A DNA stretch of 64,000 nucleotides from Rhizobium aethiopicum (GTDB lineage: Bacteria > Pseudomonadota > Alphaproteobacteria > Rhizobiales > Rhizobiaceae): the NCBI RefSeq assembly GCF_014197535.1, contig NZ_JACIFV010000014.1, forward strand, positions 1-64,000, written 5' to 3'. Made by a program: the position numbers and the translations under genes. This document shows positions 33,116 through 52,107 of the stretch, piece by piece. Each line of letters begins with the position of its first letter. Within the stretch, counting starts at the first letter, position 1. The notes beneath the pieces were generated by a model. It saw nothing but the letters and a program-made list of their open reading frames with translations, was not told where the DNA came from and did not search any database.

Positions 33116-34465
33116 ATGGGTATTGAAATACTGGCCATAGGCCTGCTGGTCGCGATGTTCATCATTGCGACGATCCAGCCGATCAACATGGGCGCGCTTG
33201 CTTTTGCCGGCGCCTTCCTTCTCGGCTCCATGACCATCGGCATGAAGACCGGTGATATTTTTGCCGGCTTCCCGAGCGATCTGTTCCTGACGCTGGTCGC
33301 CGTCACCTACCTCTTCGCCATCGCGCAGATCAACGGCACCATCGACTGGCTGGTCGAATGCGCCGTGCGCCTGGTGCGTGGACGCATCGGCCTGATCCCA
33401 TGGGTGATGTTCCTCGTCGCCGCCGTCATCACCGGTTTCGGCGCGCTTGGGCCGGCCGCAGTGGCCATTCTCGCCCCCGTGGCCTTGAGCTTTGCCATTC
33501 AGTACCGCATTCACCCGGTGATGATGGGTCTCATGGTGATCCACGGCGCCCAGGCAGGCGGCTTTTCACCGATCAGCATCTATGGCGGCATCACCAACCA
33601 GATCGTCGCGAAGGCCGGCCTGCCTTTCGCTCCGACGTCGTTGTTTCTCTCGAGCTTTTTCTTCAACCTGGCGATATCTGTGCTGGTGTTCTTCGCCTTC
33701 GGCGGCGCAAAGGTCATGAAGCACGCGCCGGCAACATCACCTGGCCCCTTGCCCGAACTGCATCCCGAGGGCGTGTCGGCCTCGATCAGGGGCCACGGCG
33801 GCACGCCGGCCAAGCCGATCCGGGAGCATGCCTACGGCACGGCGGCCGATACGGCGGCGACGCTGCGTCTGAACAATGAAAGAATCACCACCCTGATCGG
33901 CCTGACGGCGCTCGGCATCGGCGCCCTGGTTTTCAAGTTCAATGTCGGCCTCGTCGCCATGACCGTCGCCGTCGCCCTGGCGCTGCTGTCGCCGAAAACC
34001 CAGAAGGCGGCGATCGACAAGGTCAGCTGGTCGACCGTGCTGCTGATCGCCGGCATCATCACCTATGTCGGCGTCATGGAAAAAGCCGGTACGGTCGATT
34101 ACGTCGCGCACGGCATCTCCAGTCTCGGCATGCCGCTATTGGTGGCGCTGCTGCTTTGCTTCACCGGCGCCATCGTCTCGGCCTTTGCATCCTCGACCGC
34201 ACTGCTCGGCGCCATCATCCCGCTTGCCGTTCCGTTCCTGCTGCAAGGACATGTCAGCGCTGTCGGCGTGGTCGCGGCGATCGCCATCTCGACGACGATC
34301 GTCGATACCAGCCCCTTCTCCACCAATGGTGCACTTGTCGTCGCCAATGCGCCGGATGAGAGGCGCGAGCAGGTGCTGCAGCAGTTGCTGATCTACAGCG
34401 CGCTGATTGCTCTCATCGGTCCCATCGTCGCCTGGCTGGTCTTCGTCGTGCCGGGACTGGTGTGA
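33116..34465 (+). CDS. matC: Malonate carrier MatC
   Basis: This inner-membrane dicarboxylate transporter has 449 residues and about 11-12 hydrophobic segments. It belongs to the MatC/ion-transporter superfamily related to SLC13. The N-terminal half has the conserved G-F-G-A-L-G-P-A-A-V-A-I-L and G-F-S-P-I-S-I-Y-G-G segments, and the C-terminal half repeats the topology with A-S-S-T-A-L-L-G-A-I-I-P-L. A hydrophilic loop of about 50 residues (KHAPATSPGP onward) separates the halves. A strong GGAGGGAGGGG site precedes the ATG. It is the last gene of matABC; a perfect GC-rich palindrome follows. Confidence 0.93.
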   Translation: MGIEILAIGLLVAMFIIATIQPINMGALAFAGAFLLGSMTIGMKTGDIFAGFPSDLFLTLVAVTYLFAIAQINGTIDWLVECAVRLVRGRIGLIPWVMFLVAAVITGFGALGPAAVAILAPVALSFAIQYRIHPVMMGLMVIHGAQAGGFSPISIYGGITNQIVAKAGLPFAPTSLFLSSFFFNLAISVLVFFAFGGAKVMKHAPATSPGPLPELHPEGVSASIRGHGGTPAKPIREHAYGTAADTAATLRLNNERITTLIGLTALGIGALVFKFNVGLVAMTVAVALALLSPKTQKAAIDKVSWSTVLLIAGIITYVGVMEKAGTVDYVAHGISSLGMPLLVALLLCFTGAIVSAFASSTALLGAIIPLAVPFLLQGHVSAVGVVAAIAISTTIVDTSPFSTNGALVVANAPDERREQVLQQLLIYSALIALIGPIVAWLVFVVPGLV

Positions 34466-34496
34466 CGACGACGGGCCGCCGAGCCCATCGCTTCCG

Positions 34497-34516
34497 CCGC
34501 AGGCGATCGCCTGCGG
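34497..34516. terminator. Perfect 20-bp palindrome after matC
   Basis: CCGCAGGCGATCGCCTGCGG reads the same on both strands and lies 31 bases after the matC stop. It can form a GC-rich stem with a minimal GATC loop and may end or protect the mat transcript, but has no T-run. A protein-binding site is the alternative. Confidence 0.4.
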
Positions 34517-34563
34517 CCATTCCCCTAAGTGGCGATTGCCGGCCTCGGTTGACGTGGCCGAGG

Positions 34564-34581
34564 CTGTCATAAAAATTTCAT
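34564..34581 (+). promoter_or_regulatory. PHO-box-like direct repeat before the Gly/Asp-rich small gene
   Basis: CTGTCATAAAAATTTCAT contains a perfect first half-site CTGTCAT and, eleven bases on, a weaker second half ATTTCAT (five of seven). The spacing fits PhoB direct repeats. It is oriented toward the small gene, whose start codon is about 83 bases downstream. Confidence 0.5.
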
Positions 34582-34624
34582 ATCGAGCCTATTGCGAGGA
34601 TCGCGAAAGTAATCCACTATTTTT

Positions 34625-34647
34625 ATCAGGAAACAAAATTTCCTGAT
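34625..34647 (+). promoter_or_regulatory. Leader hairpin just before the ribosome site of the small gene
   Basis: Perfect 9-bp arms ATCAGGAAA / TTTCCTGAT enclose a CAAAA loop. The hairpin ends five bases before the AAAGGA ribosome site (34653-34658). It could stabilise the mRNA or control initiation. The stretch 34560-34660 is clearly AT-richer than the surrounding genes. Confidence 0.5.
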
Positions 34648-34664
34648 GCAAGAAAGGACACTGA

Positions 34665-34892
34665 TTGGATTCATATCTTCTGACCACCATGCTCGTTGCA
34701 GGTCTTCTGGCCTTTGCCCTGTCCGCGGTAAAAGAAGGAACAACCGCCCAGACCACCGCAAACACCAGGCGCAGTGCGGACTCAGGCGGCGATGCTAGTG
34801 TTGAGTTCGAGGCCTCTGATGACGGAGGTTGCGAAGGCGGCGATGGAGGTGGCGGGGACGGTGGCGGAGGAGACGGTGGAGGAGGAGACTAG
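34665..34892 (+). CDS. Small exported or membrane-anchored Gly/Asp-rich protein
   Basis: This is a 75-residue product. Residues 1-21 are hydrophobic (LLTTMLVAGLLAFALSAV) and act as signal or anchor. A Thr/Ser/Asp-rich middle follows, and the last 22 residues are almost only Gly and Asp with one Cys: GCEGG followed by repeats of D-G-G-G-G. The TTG start is supported by AAAGGA six bases upstream; an ATG at 34689 would shorten the hydrophobic part. I do not know the family. It is preceded by a PHO-box-like element and a leader hairpin and followed by its own terminator, so it looks like a regulated single gene and not a chance frame. Confidence 0.6.
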   Translation: MDSYLLTTMLVAGLLAFALSAVKEGTTAQTTANTRRSADSGGDASVEFEASDDGGCEGGDGGGGDGGGGDGGGGD

Positions 34893-34919
34893 ATCAAACG
34901 GAAATCGATAGAATGCCCG

Positions 34920-34941
34920 ACCGCCTCAAGGCCGGTTTTTT
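34920..34941 (+). terminator. Rho-independent terminator of the small Gly/Asp-rich gene
   Basis: Arms ACCGCCT / GGCCGGT with one mismatch and a CAA loop are followed by six T residues, 28 bases after the stop codon. Confidence 0.7.
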
Positions 34942-35124
34942 GTTGCCCGAACAACGCTCCGTGCCAGGCCGGAATCTCAGACGCGCGCGGGATTGCAGAA
35001 CTGATCTGACGGGCTGATAGACGAGCGGATCCAACACGCAATTCAATTTTGGGGTCGTCGCAGGAAACTCGCGCCCTATCTCAGTCGGGTCGGCGCTGGG
35101 GCGAAGGTGTTGGAGACAATCAAT

Positions 35125-36264
35125 ATGGCAAAATCTGCGGCTGGAAGCCCGTATATTTACGGGATCGACGCACTGCGATTTGTATGTGCGCTCATGGTGA
35201 CCGTATTTCATCTTGGATTTGCTTCCTGGGCTTCGCCGTTATATCTCCGAGCCTATGCAATGCCGGCGATCGAGAACATCGCTCAGCCCGGATGGGTTGG
35301 CGTCGAATTGTTCTTCGTCATATCGGGCTTCGTCATCGTCAACTCCGCCGCTTCCGCCAGCGCCATGTCCTTTCTCAAAGGGCGCATTCTGCGGCTCTAT
35401 CCGGCGGTATGGATCTGCGCATCGCTGACGCTGATCATCATCGCGACGCAAGACGTCAACAGACGCCTCCTCTGGAATTATCTGCGCTCGATCACGCTCT
35501 ATCCCGGCGGGCCCTGGATAGACGGCCAATATTGGACCTTGGCATGCGAGATCTGTTTCTATGCCATCATCTTCATCATGTGCGCGACGCGGCAAAAGAC
35601 GAGGATGCCTGCCCTGGCGCTCGGCCTGTCGTTGGCCAGCACAGCGTTCATTGCGCTGTTATACGCCTTTCCCGATGCAGCCATCCCGGCCATATTCACA
35701 GAGACCGCCTGGCGGGCCATTCCCTTCTATTATGGCTGCCAATTCGCTATCGGCATCTACATATGGCTGCTGTCCCAGGGTCGGATGAACCGCATTTCCT
35801 GGCTGGGCTTCCTCTGCGCCCTGGCGACGGGGACTGTTCAGATCTACATGGCAGGCGAGAACACCAGCGACCGTACGCTCGCCGCTGCGGGCCATGCTTT
35901 CTCGTCGTTTCCCGCAATCGTCGTCTGGGCGGCGGGGCTGGCCTCGATCGTTGCAAGCGTCGGCTACAGCAAGCGGATCAGTCACCTGCCGGCCTCCTTC
36001 CTTCAGTCGGTGAAGACCCTCGGCTCGATGACCTACCCGCTCTATCTCCTGCATTTCGCCATCGGCGTCCAGCTTCTCGACTGGTTGACTGCTCTAGGAT
36101 TGGCACCGCTCCCGGCGCTGGTTCTAGCCGTCGCGATCGTCTGCTCAATGTCGCTTGCGGTGTGCAAATGGGGAGAGCCGCCGATCCGCAAGGTCCTGCG
36201 AGGGTTCCTCGACCGGCTTGGGCAGCGCGCTGCCGGATTTCAGGCGAAGGAGTCTCGGGCTTAG
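35125..36264 (+). CDS. OafA/YrhL-type acyltransferase (acyltransferase 3 family)
   Basis: This is a 379-residue inner-membrane protein with about ten hydrophobic helices. The family signature R-F-V-C-A-L-M-V-T-V-F-H near the N-terminus contains the catalytic-type His, and GVELFFVISGFVI follows, then R-I-L-R-L-Y-P. Members O-acylate (acetyl or succinyl) surface polysaccharides, lipopolysaccharide, Nod factors or peptidoglycan. No polysaccharide cluster is adjacent, so the target is unknown. The ATG at 35125 has GGAG nine bases upstream; an in-frame GTG at 35107 is an alternative. It lies downstream of the small Gly/Asp-rich gene but beyond a terminator. Confidence 0.85.
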   Translation: MAKSAAGSPYIYGIDALRFVCALMVTVFHLGFASWASPLYLRAYAMPAIENIAQPGWVGVELFFVISGFVIVNSAASASAMSFLKGRILRLYPAVWICASLTLIIIATQDVNRRLLWNYLRSITLYPGGPWIDGQYWTLACEICFYAIIFIMCATRQKTRMPALALGLSLASTAFIALLYAFPDAAIPAIFTETAWRAIPFYYGCQFAIGIYIWLLSQGRMNRISWLGFLCALATGTVQIYMAGENTSDRTLAAAGHAFSSFPAIVVWAAGLASIVASVGYSKRISHLPASFLQSVKTLGSMTYPLYLLHFAIGVQLLDWLTALGLAPLPALVLAVAIVCSMSLAVCKWGEPPIRKVLRGFLDRLGQRAAGFQAKESRA

Positions 36265-44670: not shown

Positions 44671-44791
44671 ATTTTGCTCCCTAGGATTCTGATCGATCCT
44701 GCCTATGGCATAGGCCGTTAATCGGTTCAAGCTTGGCCTGGATCATCAACTGTTAGGGATCGTAACAAAGGGTGCGAATGTCATAAAAATT

Positions 44792-45970
44792 TCACAGGAA
44801 CAGGCCTTCGCGCATGCTCCGCATGAGATCGGTGATCTTGTCGTCGGGTTTTTCCCACAGGATGATGCGCAATTCGACGACGAGATCGCCTCTGCTGCCG
44901 TCTTCCCGCGGCAACCCCTGACCGGGAATCGCGATCGTCTTGTCCGAGCCCGACCATGCGGGAACGGTGATGTTCAAGGGCCCGGCCGGGCCGTCGATAC
45001 GAGCCTCGGTGCCGAGCACGGCATTTTCGATGCTGATCGGCAGCACGGCGTGCAGGTCGAAACCATCGACGGTGAAGCGCGGATCGGGGGCGATGCGGAT
45101 ATTGACGACGGCATCGCCGCGCTGCATGCCCGGCAGCTTGAAGCCCTGTCCCTTGAGCCGGAGCTCATGACCATCCGTGGTGCCGGCCGGCAGCGCGAAG
45201 CCGATTTCGCGGCCCTCCGGCAGAGATGCGGTGATCCAGCCGCTCTTCAGCACGTCGTCGATCGTGACCGTCGCCGTCGTCACCTCGTCGGGCGCTTTCT
45301 CGAGGCCGGTATCCTTGGCGCCGGTGAAACGGCGCACCAGCGATGTCAGAATGCTGAGCGGCAGCGACAGGTTGGCGCCGGCATTATTTGACGTCTCGCC
45401 GGGTTCCTCATTGGCCTCGGCGGCCTCACCATCCGCACGTCTGCCCTCTTCGGCCTGGCCCTGGCCCTGCGTCTGCTGATTCTGTGTTTGCGGACTCTGG
45501 GCCTGCTGGGCGCGGCCTTGCGCCTGGCCGCCCGCCGCAGCGCGCGCCTGCGCGCCGAAAATGCGCTCCACCATCTCCTCGGCGCCTTCGCCGGCGCCGG
45601 CCTGTTGTCGCTGGCCGTCGGCCGCGGCCTTCTGGGCAGCCCGGGCAAGCTCTTCCATCACCCGCTCGGCATTGGCCTGTGCCGCCTTGGCGCGAGCCGC
45701 CGCCTCACGCGCGGCCTGGCGCTGCTGCATGATCGTCTGTTCCTGCTTCTTGGCTTCCGCCATCCGCACGGCATTGTCGAACAGGCTGCGTTTGCGCGGA
45801 TCTCTCAGCGTTTCGTAGGCGCGGCCGATCTCGGCGAACCGGGCCGTCGCCGTCGGATCGCCCTGATTGTGATCGGGATGGGCTGCTTTGGCCATGTTGC
45901 GCCAGGCCGCCTTGATCTCGTCCGCCGCCGCGTCGCGCTTGACGCCCAGAATTTTGTAAGGATCGCGCAT
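44792..45970 (-). CDS. DnaJ-class co-chaperone (CbpA-like, no zinc finger)
   Basis: This is a 392-residue J-domain protein. Residues 1-70 are the J-domain with the HPD motif in AKAAHPDHNQ, which stimulates the DnaK ATPase. A long charged coiled coil (EAKKQEQTIMQQRQAAREAA) follows, then a Gln/Ala/Gly-rich linker of about 60 residues. The C-terminal substrate-binding domains are intact (GHELRLKGQGFKLPG; GDLVVELRI). The cysteine-rich zinc domain of true DnaJ is absent, which makes it a CbpA-type protein. The frame extends upstream to 46123, but MRDPYKILGVKRDA is the expected start. fabI follows on the same strand after about 120 bases. Confidence 0.9.
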   Translation of the reverse strand: MRDPYKILGVKRDAAADEIKAAWRNMAKAAHPDHNQGDPTATARFAEIGRAYETLRDPRKRSLFDNAVRMAEAKKQEQTIMQQRQAAREAAARAKAAQANAERVMEELARAAQKAAADGQRQQAGAGEGAEEMVERIFGAQARAAAGGQAQGRAQQAQSPQTQNQQTQGQGQAEEGRRADGEAAEANEEPGETSNNAGANLSLPLSILTSLVRRFTGAKDTGLEKAPDEVTTATVTIDDVLKSGWITASLPEGREIGFALPAGTTDGHELRLKGQGFKLPGMQRGDAVVNIRIAPDPRFTVDGFDLHAVLPISIENAVLGTEARIDGPAGPLNITVPAWSGSDKTIAIPGQGLPREDGSRGDLVVELRIILWEKPDDKITDLMRSMREGLFL

Positions 45971-50346: not shown

Positions 50347-51360
50347 TCAGAAGATTTTGCTCAAGCCGGTCACCAGCCAGAAGGAAAGCGCCGATATTAT
50401 CGCCGCGGCCGGCAGGGTGATGATCCATGCGATCACGATGTTGCCGGCAAGCCCCCATCTGACGGCGGACACGCGCCGGGCGGCGCCGACGCCGATGATT
50501 GCGCCGGTAATCGTATGGGTGGTTGAAACGGGGATGCCGAGCCAGGTGGCGCCGAACAGCGTCAAGGCGCCGCCCGTTTCGGCGCAGAATCCTTGCATCG
50601 GGTTCAGCCTGGTGATCTTCGAGCCCATCGTATGGACGATGCGCCAGCCGCCGAACAAGGTGCCGAGCGCCATCGCCGCCTGGCAGGAAATCACCACCCA
50701 GAGCGGCACGTGGAAGTTGCCGCCGAGATAGCCCTGCGAGTAAAGAAGCACGGCGATGATGCCCATGGTCTTCTGGGCGTCATTGCCGCCATGGCCGAGT
50801 GAATAGAACGACGCCGACACGAACTGCAGGAAACGGAAGGATCGGTCGACGGCAAACGGCGTCTGCCGGATGAAGATCCAGGTCACCGCCAGGATGAGGA
50901 ACAGTGCCAGGAGAAAACCGATCATCGGCGACATGACGATGGCGGCGGCGGTCTTGAGAAGACCGCTCCAGACGATCGAGCTCAACCCCGTTTTGGCAAG
51001 GCCCGCACCGACCAGCCCGCCGACCAGGGCATGGGATGAACTGGAGGGAATGCCGAAGATCCAGGTCACGACATTCCAGACGATGGCGCCGATCAGGGCC
51101 GCGAAAATCACCTGCGGCGTTACGATCGCCGGATCGATGATGCCGGTCCCGAGCGTCTCGGCCACATGCAGCCCGAAGAACAGGAAGGCGATGAAATTGA
51201 AGAATGCCGCCCAGAAGACCGCATATTGCGGCCTCAGGACACGTGTCGAGACGATTGTTGCGATCGAATTGGCCGCATCATGCAGGCCATTGAGAAAATC
51301 GAACAGCAGCGCGACGCCGATGAGGCCGACAAGAAGCGGAAGAGCGAGGACGGCATCCAT
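50347..51360 (-). CDS. pit: Low-affinity inorganic phosphate transporter (PiT)
   Basis: This inner-membrane phosphate:cation symporter has 337 residues and about nine to ten membrane helices. The two PiT signatures are seen: FLNGLHDAANSIATIVSTR near the N-terminus and SLGHGGNDAQKTMGII in the middle. Its ATG overlaps the stop of the DUF47 gene by one base (TGATG), so both are cotranslated. The pair is like the orfA-pit operon of Sinorhizobium meliloti, where PhoB represses it under phosphate limitation. Here a PHO box lies upstream of the DUF47 gene. Confidence 0.93.
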   Translation of the reverse strand: MDAVLALPLLVGLIGVALLFDFLNGLHDAANSIATIVSTRVLRPQYAVFWAAFFNFIAFLFFGLHVAETLGTGIIDPAIVTPQVIFAALIGAIVWNVVTWIFGIPSSSSHALVGGLVGAGLAKTGLSSIVWSGLLKTAAAIVMSPMIGFLLALFLILAVTWIFIRQTPFAVDRSFRFLQFVSASFYSLGHGGNDAQKTMGIIAVLLYSQGYLGGNFHVPLWVVISCQAAMALGTLFGGWRIVHTMGSKITRLNPMQGFCAETGGALTLFGATWLGIPVSTTHTITGAIIGVGAARRVSAVRWGLAGNIVIAWIITLPAAAIISALSFWLVTGLSKIF

Positions 51361-52001
51361 CAGACATTCTCGATCACGATGCCGCTGATCTCGTTGGCGA
51401 CGTCCTCGAAACGGTCGACCACCTTCTCCAGCTCGCCGTAGATCTCGCTGCCGATCATATAGGCCATCGCATTGCCGGCGCCGTGCCGACGAAACAGATC
51501 CTTGAGTCCCTGCTCGTGCAACTCGTCGGAGCGCCCTTCCACCCGCGTGACCTGCTCGACGATGGCAGAAAGCCGCGGTGCATTGGCGCTCATGCGATCA
51601 AGCAACGGAATGGCCTCGGAGATGAGATTGGCAGCTTCCACAACCGTCTTGCCCATCTCCTGCATCCCCGGATCGAAGCTGGTCTGCTCGAAGAGCCGGA
51701 TGGTCTTGACGGTCTTGTGCATCATGTCGATCGCATCATCCATGGATTGGATGAGATCCTTGATGTCTCCACGATCGAAAGGTGTGATGAAGCTCCGCCG
51801 GACGGCCTGCATGACTTCGCGTGTTATATCGTCGGCCTGATCTTCCAACCGCACGATCGTTTCGCATTGATGCTCGATCTCTACTCCCGACAGCAACCTG
51901 TCCAGAGCCTGTGCGGCGTCGACGATCGTTCTGGAATGTTGTTCGAAAAGGACGAAGAACCGGTCTTCGCGCGGCATCAACTTTCGAAACCAACCCAGCA
52001 T
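51360..52001 (-). CDS. DUF47 family PhoU-like accessory protein of Pit
   Basis: This is a 213-residue all-helical cytoplasmic protein of the DUF47/PhoU-like family (COG1392), which is almost always encoded with pit. Conserved pieces are FFVLFEQHSRTIVDAAQ, RLEDQADDITREV with metal-binding acidic residues, and SMDDAIDMMHK. It is thought to control the paired Pit transporter. The ATG at 52001 has GAGG six bases upstream; a frame to 52040 is not needed. The gene leads the operon with pit. Confidence 0.88.
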   Translation of the reverse strand: MLGWFRKLMPREDRFFVLFEQHSRTIVDAAQALDRLLSGVEIEHQCETIVRLEDQADDITREVMQAVRRSFITPFDRGDIKDLIQSMDDAIDMMHKTVKTIRLFEQTSFDPGMQEMGKTVVEAANLISEAIPLLDRMSANAPRLSAIVEQVTRVEGRSDELHEQGLKDLFRRHGAGNAMAYMIGSEIYGELEKVVDRFEDVANEISGIVIENV

Positions 52002-52087
52002 GAACACCTCGTGATCTTTGGTCTGCGCTATAGGCGACAAGCCGTCCTAAACCGTATCCCATTGAAGTGATAGGGGTGAATTTCAGT

Positions 52088-52107
52088 TTATGACAGATTT
52101 GTGACAG
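52088..52107 (-). promoter_or_regulatory. PHO box upstream of the DUF47-pit operon
   Basis: On the minus strand the 20 bases read CTGTCACAAATCTGTCATAA, a nearly perfect PhoB direct repeat (CTGTCA x5 CTGTCA, 11-base period). It lies 87-106 bases before the DUF47 start codon. In S. meliloti such a site mediates PhoB control of orfA-pit. Confidence 0.85.

What the first reader, a model, noticed from the sequence alone, without database searches (positions are those of the whole stretch)
34564..34941. Unrecognised Gly/Asp-rich small protein in a self-contained, possibly phosphate-controlled unit
The unit has a PHO-box-like direct repeat (34564-34581), a 9-bp leader hairpin ending five bases before AAAGGA, a TTG start, a hydrophobic N-terminus, a tail of G-G-G-G-D repeats with a single Cys, and its own terminator. 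All expression signals of a real gene are present within 380 AT-richer bases. The Asp-rich tail could bind cations, or the peptide could be processed or modified.
Basis: partly seen in the sequence, partly recalled or inferred. Interest (0 to 1): 0.6.

Follow-up and report, generated by a model that had tools for sequence, protein, structure and literature searches.

The report
Phosphate-box small membrane protein gene
In Rhizobium of the leguminosarum/etli group this is a real but unnamed small gene behind a phosphate-response box; it encodes a tiny probable membrane protein with a strictly kept glycine-aspartate tail, and the end of its message is unusually well preserved.

Summary
Window 34564-34949 (+) is one compact unit: PHO box, leader hairpin, TTG-started 75-codon gene, terminator. 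It is present once per genome in 47 of 148 genomes of the genus: 45 of 48 genomes close to the window's by a COX1 yardstick, 1 of 98 more distant ones. One of the 47 is a truncated remnant.

The protein is real: in the other 46 copies the frame is open, every tail ends GGGD, and tail pN/pS is 0.04. The PHO box scores second in the whole 64-kb window with a matrix from E. coli PhoB sites; first is a box before a DUF47-Pit phosphate-transporter pair.

New: the 57-nt 3' UTR averages 0.946 identity, against 0.607 at the gene's own third codon positions, and far above the stretches after most neighbouring genes. That suggests an RNA role too.

Most likely: a PhoB-controlled, membrane-anchored small regulator with a cytoplasmic anionic tail. 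PhoB dependence, topology, partner and RNA role are inferred. No Pfam, NCBIfam or Rfam family fits.

The parts
34564..34581 (+). PHO-box-like direct repeat CTGTCATAAAAATTTCAT
   Evidence: Second-best PhoB-matrix score of the 64-kb window, both strands; 46 of 46 upstream regions score above the 95th percentile of shuffles; conserved columns
34615..34620 (+). possible -10 hexamer (CACTAT here; TACTAT, TATTAT, TACAAT, TATAAT in relatives)
   Evidence: by eye; inference, no start site mapped
34625..34647 (+). leader hairpin, 9 bp in the window
   Evidence: consensus fold of 6 pairs, each kept in 37-39 of 40 copies, one pair with changes on both sides; broken in G012 and shortened by deletion in G073 (by eye)
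34653..34658 (+). Shine-Dalgarno-like AAAGGA
   Evidence: sequence; AGGA invariant in 40 of 40 aligned copies
34665..34892 (+). small-protein gene, 75 codons, TTG start, TAG stop
   Evidence: GATTG at the start position in 46 of 46 copies; frame open in 46 of 46, other frames 3 and 0 (G064 read from the ATT before its out-of-frame TTG)
34671..34751 (+). predicted helix, residues 3-29 (membrane span in its first part)
   Evidence: AlphaFold2 helix 3-29, pLDDT about 84-85 for residues 1-20; charge pattern and hydropathy
34815..34889 (+). Gly/Asp tail with Cys (codon 34830-34832), residues 51-75
   Evidence: tail pN/pS 0.04 over pairs of 45 copies; ends GGGD in 46 of 46
34890..34949 (+). near-invariant 3' UTR including stop codon and terminator
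   Evidence: mean pairwise identity 0.946 over 1035 pairs; per-column values
34919..34942 (+). intrinsic terminator GACCGCCTCAAGGCCGGTTTTTTG
   Evidence: alignment A3; extra C in the window only

Best explanation
A clade-specific, probably PhoB-controlled gene for a small inner-membrane protein. Shown: one conserved unit from PHO box to dedicated terminator; a frame under protein-level selection; a tail under very strong selection. Inferred: when phosphate runs low PhoB~P acts at the box (activation likelier than repression); the protein inserts with its short N-terminus outside and its linker and Gly/Asp/Cys tail in the cytoplasm; there the flexible anionic tail contacts a partner, most likely a sensor or transporter of the phosphate response, and tunes it, as other small proteins do. 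Odds: real translated gene 0.95; under PhoB 0.85, activated rather than repressed 0.7; N-out/C-in membrane protein 0.65; partner-binding regulator 0.4.
For: Frame open in 46 of 46 copies, CDS lengths all multiples of 3 though varying 57-78 codons, pN below pS in 476 of 480 pairs with pS 0.02-0.5, tail pN/pS 0.04. Lys/Arg before the hydrophobic stretch in 2 of 46, after it in 46 of 46. PHO box: rank 2 in the window, above the shuffled 95th percentile in 46 of 46; exact pattern five times in the own genome, reversed control none, one of the other four before an alkaline phosphatase gene. Clade-wide retention: 45 of 48 close genomes.
Against: No expression, topology or partner data. The N-terminal third is loosely constrained (pN/pS 0.86). 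No partner gene travels with it; immediate neighbours differ. Three close genomes lack it (G104, G144, G086), so it is dispensable. PhoB can also repress, and orfA-pit of S. meliloti with a similar box is reported as repressed (PMC3131613, passages). The box lies about 33 nt before the possible -10, further than I recall for classical PhoB promoters. Only 19 of 46 upstream regions exceed the shuffled maximum with the 59-site matrix (43 of 46 with the nine-site matrix). The other box-bearing own-genome loci are not all obvious phosphate genes.
Confidence: 0.4

Rival explanations
1. Dual-function unit: besides the protein, the 3' UTR acts as a regulatory RNA (processed from the mRNA or made on its own) that pairs with other mRNAs in phosphate starvation. 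It does not exclude the best explanation.
For: 3' UTR identity 0.946 against 0.607 at own third codon positions; on the same pairs, gaps counted, 0.926-0.986 against 0.32-0.64 after the stops of eleven of thirteen neighbour clusters; terminator stem and loop conserved by sequence, not by compensating changes; 47 of 47 genomes with the 3' element also hold the gene or its remnant.
Against: No RNA observed; no Rfam match at E 1; the 3' element was never found without the gene, so it may simply be that gene's terminator; two of thirteen control clusters reached 0.82 and 0.88 (there, by eye, the next gene begins inside the stretch). No target was sought.
Confidence: 0.3
2. Cation- or metal-binding tail: the Gly/Asp/Cys tail holds ions at the membrane during phosphate shortage.
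For: Asp and Cys kept in the tail; a diverged subgroup adds Cys and His (SHGGDCHGG.CDGG).
Against: 26 of 46 copies have a single Cys; no known metal-binding motif was found by Pfam.
Confidence: 0.15
3. Precursor of a secreted or modified peptide (bacteriocin-like).
For: Small, Gly-rich, variable N-terminal part; one of 23 members scanned matches PF25184 YxzE-like putative bacteriocin at E 0.0054.
Against: No Lys/Arg before the hydrophobic stretch in 44 of 46; no conserved maturation or immunity gene beside it (names by eye); tail too uniform for an arms race (pN/pS 0.04).
Confidence: 0.08
4. Non-coding RNA or chance frame; the ORF is not translated.
For: The RNA ends are more conserved than the N-terminal codons.
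Against: Frame open in 46 of 46, lengths multiples of 3, tail pN/pS 0.04; conserved AGGA and TTG.
Confidence: 0.02

Closest known systems
Small DUF1127 proteins acting on PhoR (Agrobacterium tumefaciens; PMC12501420, abstract and outline seen)
   Same: Very small rhizobiaceal proteins linked to phosphate control; a model of action by binding the sensor kinase
   Different: No DUF1127 match in the window protein or the 23 members scanned; hydrophobic span and Gly/Asp tail instead
E. coli YoaI (PhoB-activated; PMC10294691, passages and section 6 part 1 seen; that it is a small membrane protein is recalled)
   Same: Small gene directly behind a PhoB site
   Different: No sequence comparison made; recalled as about 34 aa without such a tail
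MgrB, small membrane inhibitor of PhoQ (PMC8404706, start of abstract in a listing)
   Same: Single-span small protein made by the regulon it tunes
   Different: Different system; no sequence relation tested
UdsC of Rhodobacter sphaeroides (PMC9779115, abstract and passages seen)
   Same: 67-nt sRNA from the 3' UTR of an mRNA for a hypothetical protein in an alphaproteobacterium
   Different: Processing, Hfq role and targets known there; here only conservation
Pfam PF07172 GRP
   Same: Hydrophobic start and Gly-rich end
   Different: 22.2 bits against a cut-off of 30; 4 of 23 members match at E 0.01: composition only

Membership tests
PhoB (Pho) regulon | two 7-nt direct repeats CTGTCAT with 4-nt AT-rich spacer upstream | tested here: met
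   window 34564-34581; matrix score rank 2 in 64 kb; 46 of 46 copies above shuffled 95th percentile
PhoB (Pho) regulon | box placed at the usual distance from the -10 element | tested here: inconclusive
   possible -10 at 34615-34620 by eye, about 33 nt past the box; start site unknown
PhoB (Pho) regulon | phosphate- and PhoB-dependent expression | not testable with these tools
   no expression data at hand
3'-UTR-derived sRNA | conserved 3' end with its own intrinsic terminator | tested here: met
3'-UTR-derived sRNA | discrete processed or primary RNA, Hfq binding | not testable with these tools
   needs RNA work
3'-UTR-derived sRNA | conserved target pairing in trans | not tested
   no target prediction made; pairing with the own leader averaged -9.4 against -8.7 kcal/mol for shuffled 3' UTRs, at differing positions
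DUF1127 small proteins | Pfam DUF1127 match | tested here: not met
   no such match for the window protein or 23 of the 46 copies scanned
Pfam PF07172 GRP | score above the curated cut-off | tested here: not met
   22.2 bits against 30
RTX calcium-binding repeats (motif GGxGxDxUx recalled) | nonapeptide repeats with an aliphatic position | tested here: not met
   the tail is GGGGD pentads without hydrophobic residues (sequence); no Pfam repeat match
Single-span N-out/C-in membrane protein | hydrophobic stretch with positive residues on its C-terminal side only | tested here: met
   no Lys/Arg before it in 44 of 46, at least one after it in 46 of 46; topology itself not measured

The most novel reading that the evidence does not exclude
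One PhoB-controlled transcript with two products: a membrane-tethered Gly/Asp/Cys-tailed regulator protein and a nearly sequence-invariant 3'-UTR regulatory RNA that acts on other mRNAs in phosphate starvation, kept across one clade of legume symbionts.
Probability: 0.28. Interest if true: 0.7.

Novelty: new variant of a known kind. Interest (0 to 1): 0.5.

Why it matters
It adds an unnamed gene, kept in 45 of 48 close genomes, to the probable phosphate response of the R. leguminosarum/etli group. A fixed TTG start and a low-complexity tail are features that family libraries handle badly, and none of those searched holds it. A tail with pN/pS 0.04 next to a 3' UTR of 0.946 identity makes a dual protein-RNA function directly testable in a laboratory strain.

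Tried and rejected
Rfam scan of 34400-35200, E up to 1: no match. Plasmid collection: 1 and 8 records with short partial hits (at most 16% of the query), none a copy of the unit. Viral contigs with the exact terminator 28-mer: none, so no sign of a mobile copy. Second copy in the own genome: none. Outside the genus: protein model 3 of 394 family genomes, all three in the genus; 3'-UTR model 5 of 394, two of them weak (E 0.004 and 0.0055) outside the genus and not followed. Pairing between leader and 3' UTR: hardly above shuffles, positions differ. Structure: a helix plus disorder, mean pLDDT 59, pTM 0.29, so no fold search was made. Literature searches listed no paper that I recognised as about this gene, judged from titles and starts of abstracts (10 to 20 listed of up to 1,016, or fewer). 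Main texts of PMC2881028, PMC4167512 and PMC3188799 were searched for coordinates of the copy in G009, which I take for R. etli CFN42 from its contig length (recalled): no relevant hit. sRNA target prediction was considered and left out: without annotation chance matches would dominate.

Full report
What is there. The unit lies between a matC-type gene (Pfam MatC_N, 33116-34465) and an acyltransferase gene (PF01757; ORF 35107-36264). The simple terminator scan did not report its terminator; the window's stem carries an extra C that the other 39 aligned copies lack.

Conservation. A search with the protein found relatives in the genus. A model of nine sequences found 40 of 148 genomes. A covariance model of the 3' UTR found 47 of 148, one match each, including all 40. 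The seven further genomes hold the whole unit with a more diverged protein (G017, six). One of the 47, G066, is a remnant: its frame is cut at the front and its stop codon is lost. It is left out below, so counts are of 46 copies; alignments A2 and A3 hold 40 of the 46, A4 holds 23. An exact scan for the terminator 28-mer in the species-genome collection gave 28 stretches, all titled Rhizobium, among them R. leguminosarum, R. johnstonii 3841, R. phaseoli, R. anhuiense, R. laguerreae and R. esperanzae. With the window's cytochrome oxidase subunit (Pfam COX1) as yardstick, 45 of 48 genomes at 97% identity or more carry the unit and 1 of 98 below that; of two genomes without a yardstick match one carries it. 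Three close genomes without it (G104, G144, G086) show no leader match either. In 394 genomes drawn from the family the protein model hit three, all in the genus.

Place in the chromosome. In the 40 loci compared (39 of the 46 copies, and G066) the neighbours are of two broad sorts: mat-type or regulator genes with acyltransferase- or bioY-like genes, or a PAS-like gene with an alpha/beta-hydrolase-like gene (names by eye except matC and the acyltransferase). Immediate neighbours vary, and outside PHO box and terminator the alignment of all copies shows no conserved columns, though related genomes share flanks (output partly cut). So no partner gene travels with it.

Protein. The frame is open in 46 of 46, the other frames in 3 and 0; lengths are multiples of three and range from 57 to 78 codons. 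Caution: G064 lacks a base after the TTG and was read from the ATT before it; it was dropped from the pN/pS figures. GATTG stands at the start position in 46 of 46, so the TTG start is a fixed trait. pN/pS (Nei-Gojobori counts, own script, 45 copies) is 0.52 for the 480 pairs with pS of 0.02-0.5, and by region 0.86 (N-terminal), 0.56 (linker), 0.04 (tail). All 46 copies end in GGGD and keep the tail Cys; 26 have one Cys, 20 have two to four. Lys/Arg precede the hydrophobic stretch in 2 of 46 and follow it in 46 of 46. AlphaFold2 gives a helix 3-29 and disorder beyond. Pfam gives only hits below cut-off and NCBIfam none.

Control region. The box is among the most conserved columns of the leader. 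A matrix from 59 E. coli PhoB sites (Table 1 of PMC10294691, read) ranks it second of all positions in the window, both strands; a matrix from nine sites of regulated genes gives the same rank. First is 52089-52106 on the minus strand, 49 nt before a DUF47 gene (PF01865) followed by a Pit-type transporter gene (PF01384). PMC3131613 (passages) names orfA-pit of S. meliloti as carrying such a box and as repressed in phosphate starvation, so the box alone does not tell activation from repression. All 46 upstream regions (103 nt each) exceed the 95th percentile of mononucleotide shuffles; 19 exceed the shuffled maximum with the large matrix and 43 with the small one. In the whole genome the exact pattern TGTCAT-N5-TKTCAT occurs five times and the reversed control never. 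Of the other four, one stands before an alkaline phosphatase gene (PF00245), one near a methyltransferase gene, one near an ECF-type sigma factor gene, and one near a frame without a Pfam match. The hairpin is kept pair by pair in 37-39 of 40 copies with little covariation.

3' UTR. Over 1035 pairs of 46 copies its identity is 0.946; the 103 nt upstream of the start have 0.821; own codon positions 0.737, 0.760 and 0.607. Six neighbour gene sets have third-position identities of 0.757-0.837; in two of these sets (context with the PAS-like gene) the unit's own third positions (0.86) are no worse than the neighbours' (0.83-0.84), so the excess of silent change is a feature of the other context. 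With gaps counted as mismatches, the 57 nt after the stops of thirteen neighbour clusters gave 0.32-0.64 for eleven and 0.82 and 0.88 for two, against 0.926-0.986 for the unit in the same genomes. In those two the next gene begins, by eye, inside the stretch; some clusters hold wrong-frame ORFs, so this control is rough. The terminator is kept letter by letter rather than by compensating changes. This is more than a plain terminator seems to need and is the ground for the RNA reading. It is not proof: no RNA was seen, Rfam has no such family, and pairing with the own leader is hardly better than shuffled.

Interpretation. Shown: a conserved, clade-specific small-protein gene with a PhoB-type box, a strongly selected tail and an unusually conserved 3' UTR. 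Inferred: control by PhoB, membrane topology, regulation of a partner through the tail, and a possible regulatory RNA. Working models are small proteins that tune sensor kinases (DUF1127 with PhoR, PMC12501420, abstract and outline; MgrB with PhoQ, PMC8404706, start of abstract) and UdsC, a 3'-UTR sRNA of an mRNA for a hypothetical protein (PMC9779115, abstract and passages). Membership in those families is not claimed; DUF1127 was tested and not met.

Noticed in passing
window 52089-52106 (-) with 50347-52040 (-): The best PhoB-matrix score of the window stands 49 nt before a DUF47 gene followed by a Pit-type phosphate transporter gene: a likely Pho-controlled pair within 18 kb of the unit.
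   Followed up: partly
window 44779-44796 (+): A third strong PHO-box-like sequence, TGTCATAAAAATTTCACA, almost the same letters as the unit's box, in the gap between two minus-strand genes that look by eye like fabI and a DnaJ-family gene.
   Followed up: no
L097 and L101 (own genome C1:313302 and C15:21035): Exact PHO-box patterns near a methyltransferase gene and an ECF-type sigma factor gene: candidates for the same control.
   Followed up: no
L065 (genome G066): Truncated remnant of the unit: promoter, leader and N-terminal part gone, stop codon lost, 3' UTR still recognisable.
   Followed up: partly
L096, L107, L108, L110, L111, L112 (and in part L109): A diverged protein subgroup whose tail adds Cys and His (CHGG.CDGG type; L109 differs) while the 3' UTR stays almost unchanged.
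   Followed up: partly
L105 and L106 (genomes G327 and G459): Two weak matches to the 3'-UTR model (E 0.004 and 0.0055) outside the genus.
   Followed up: no
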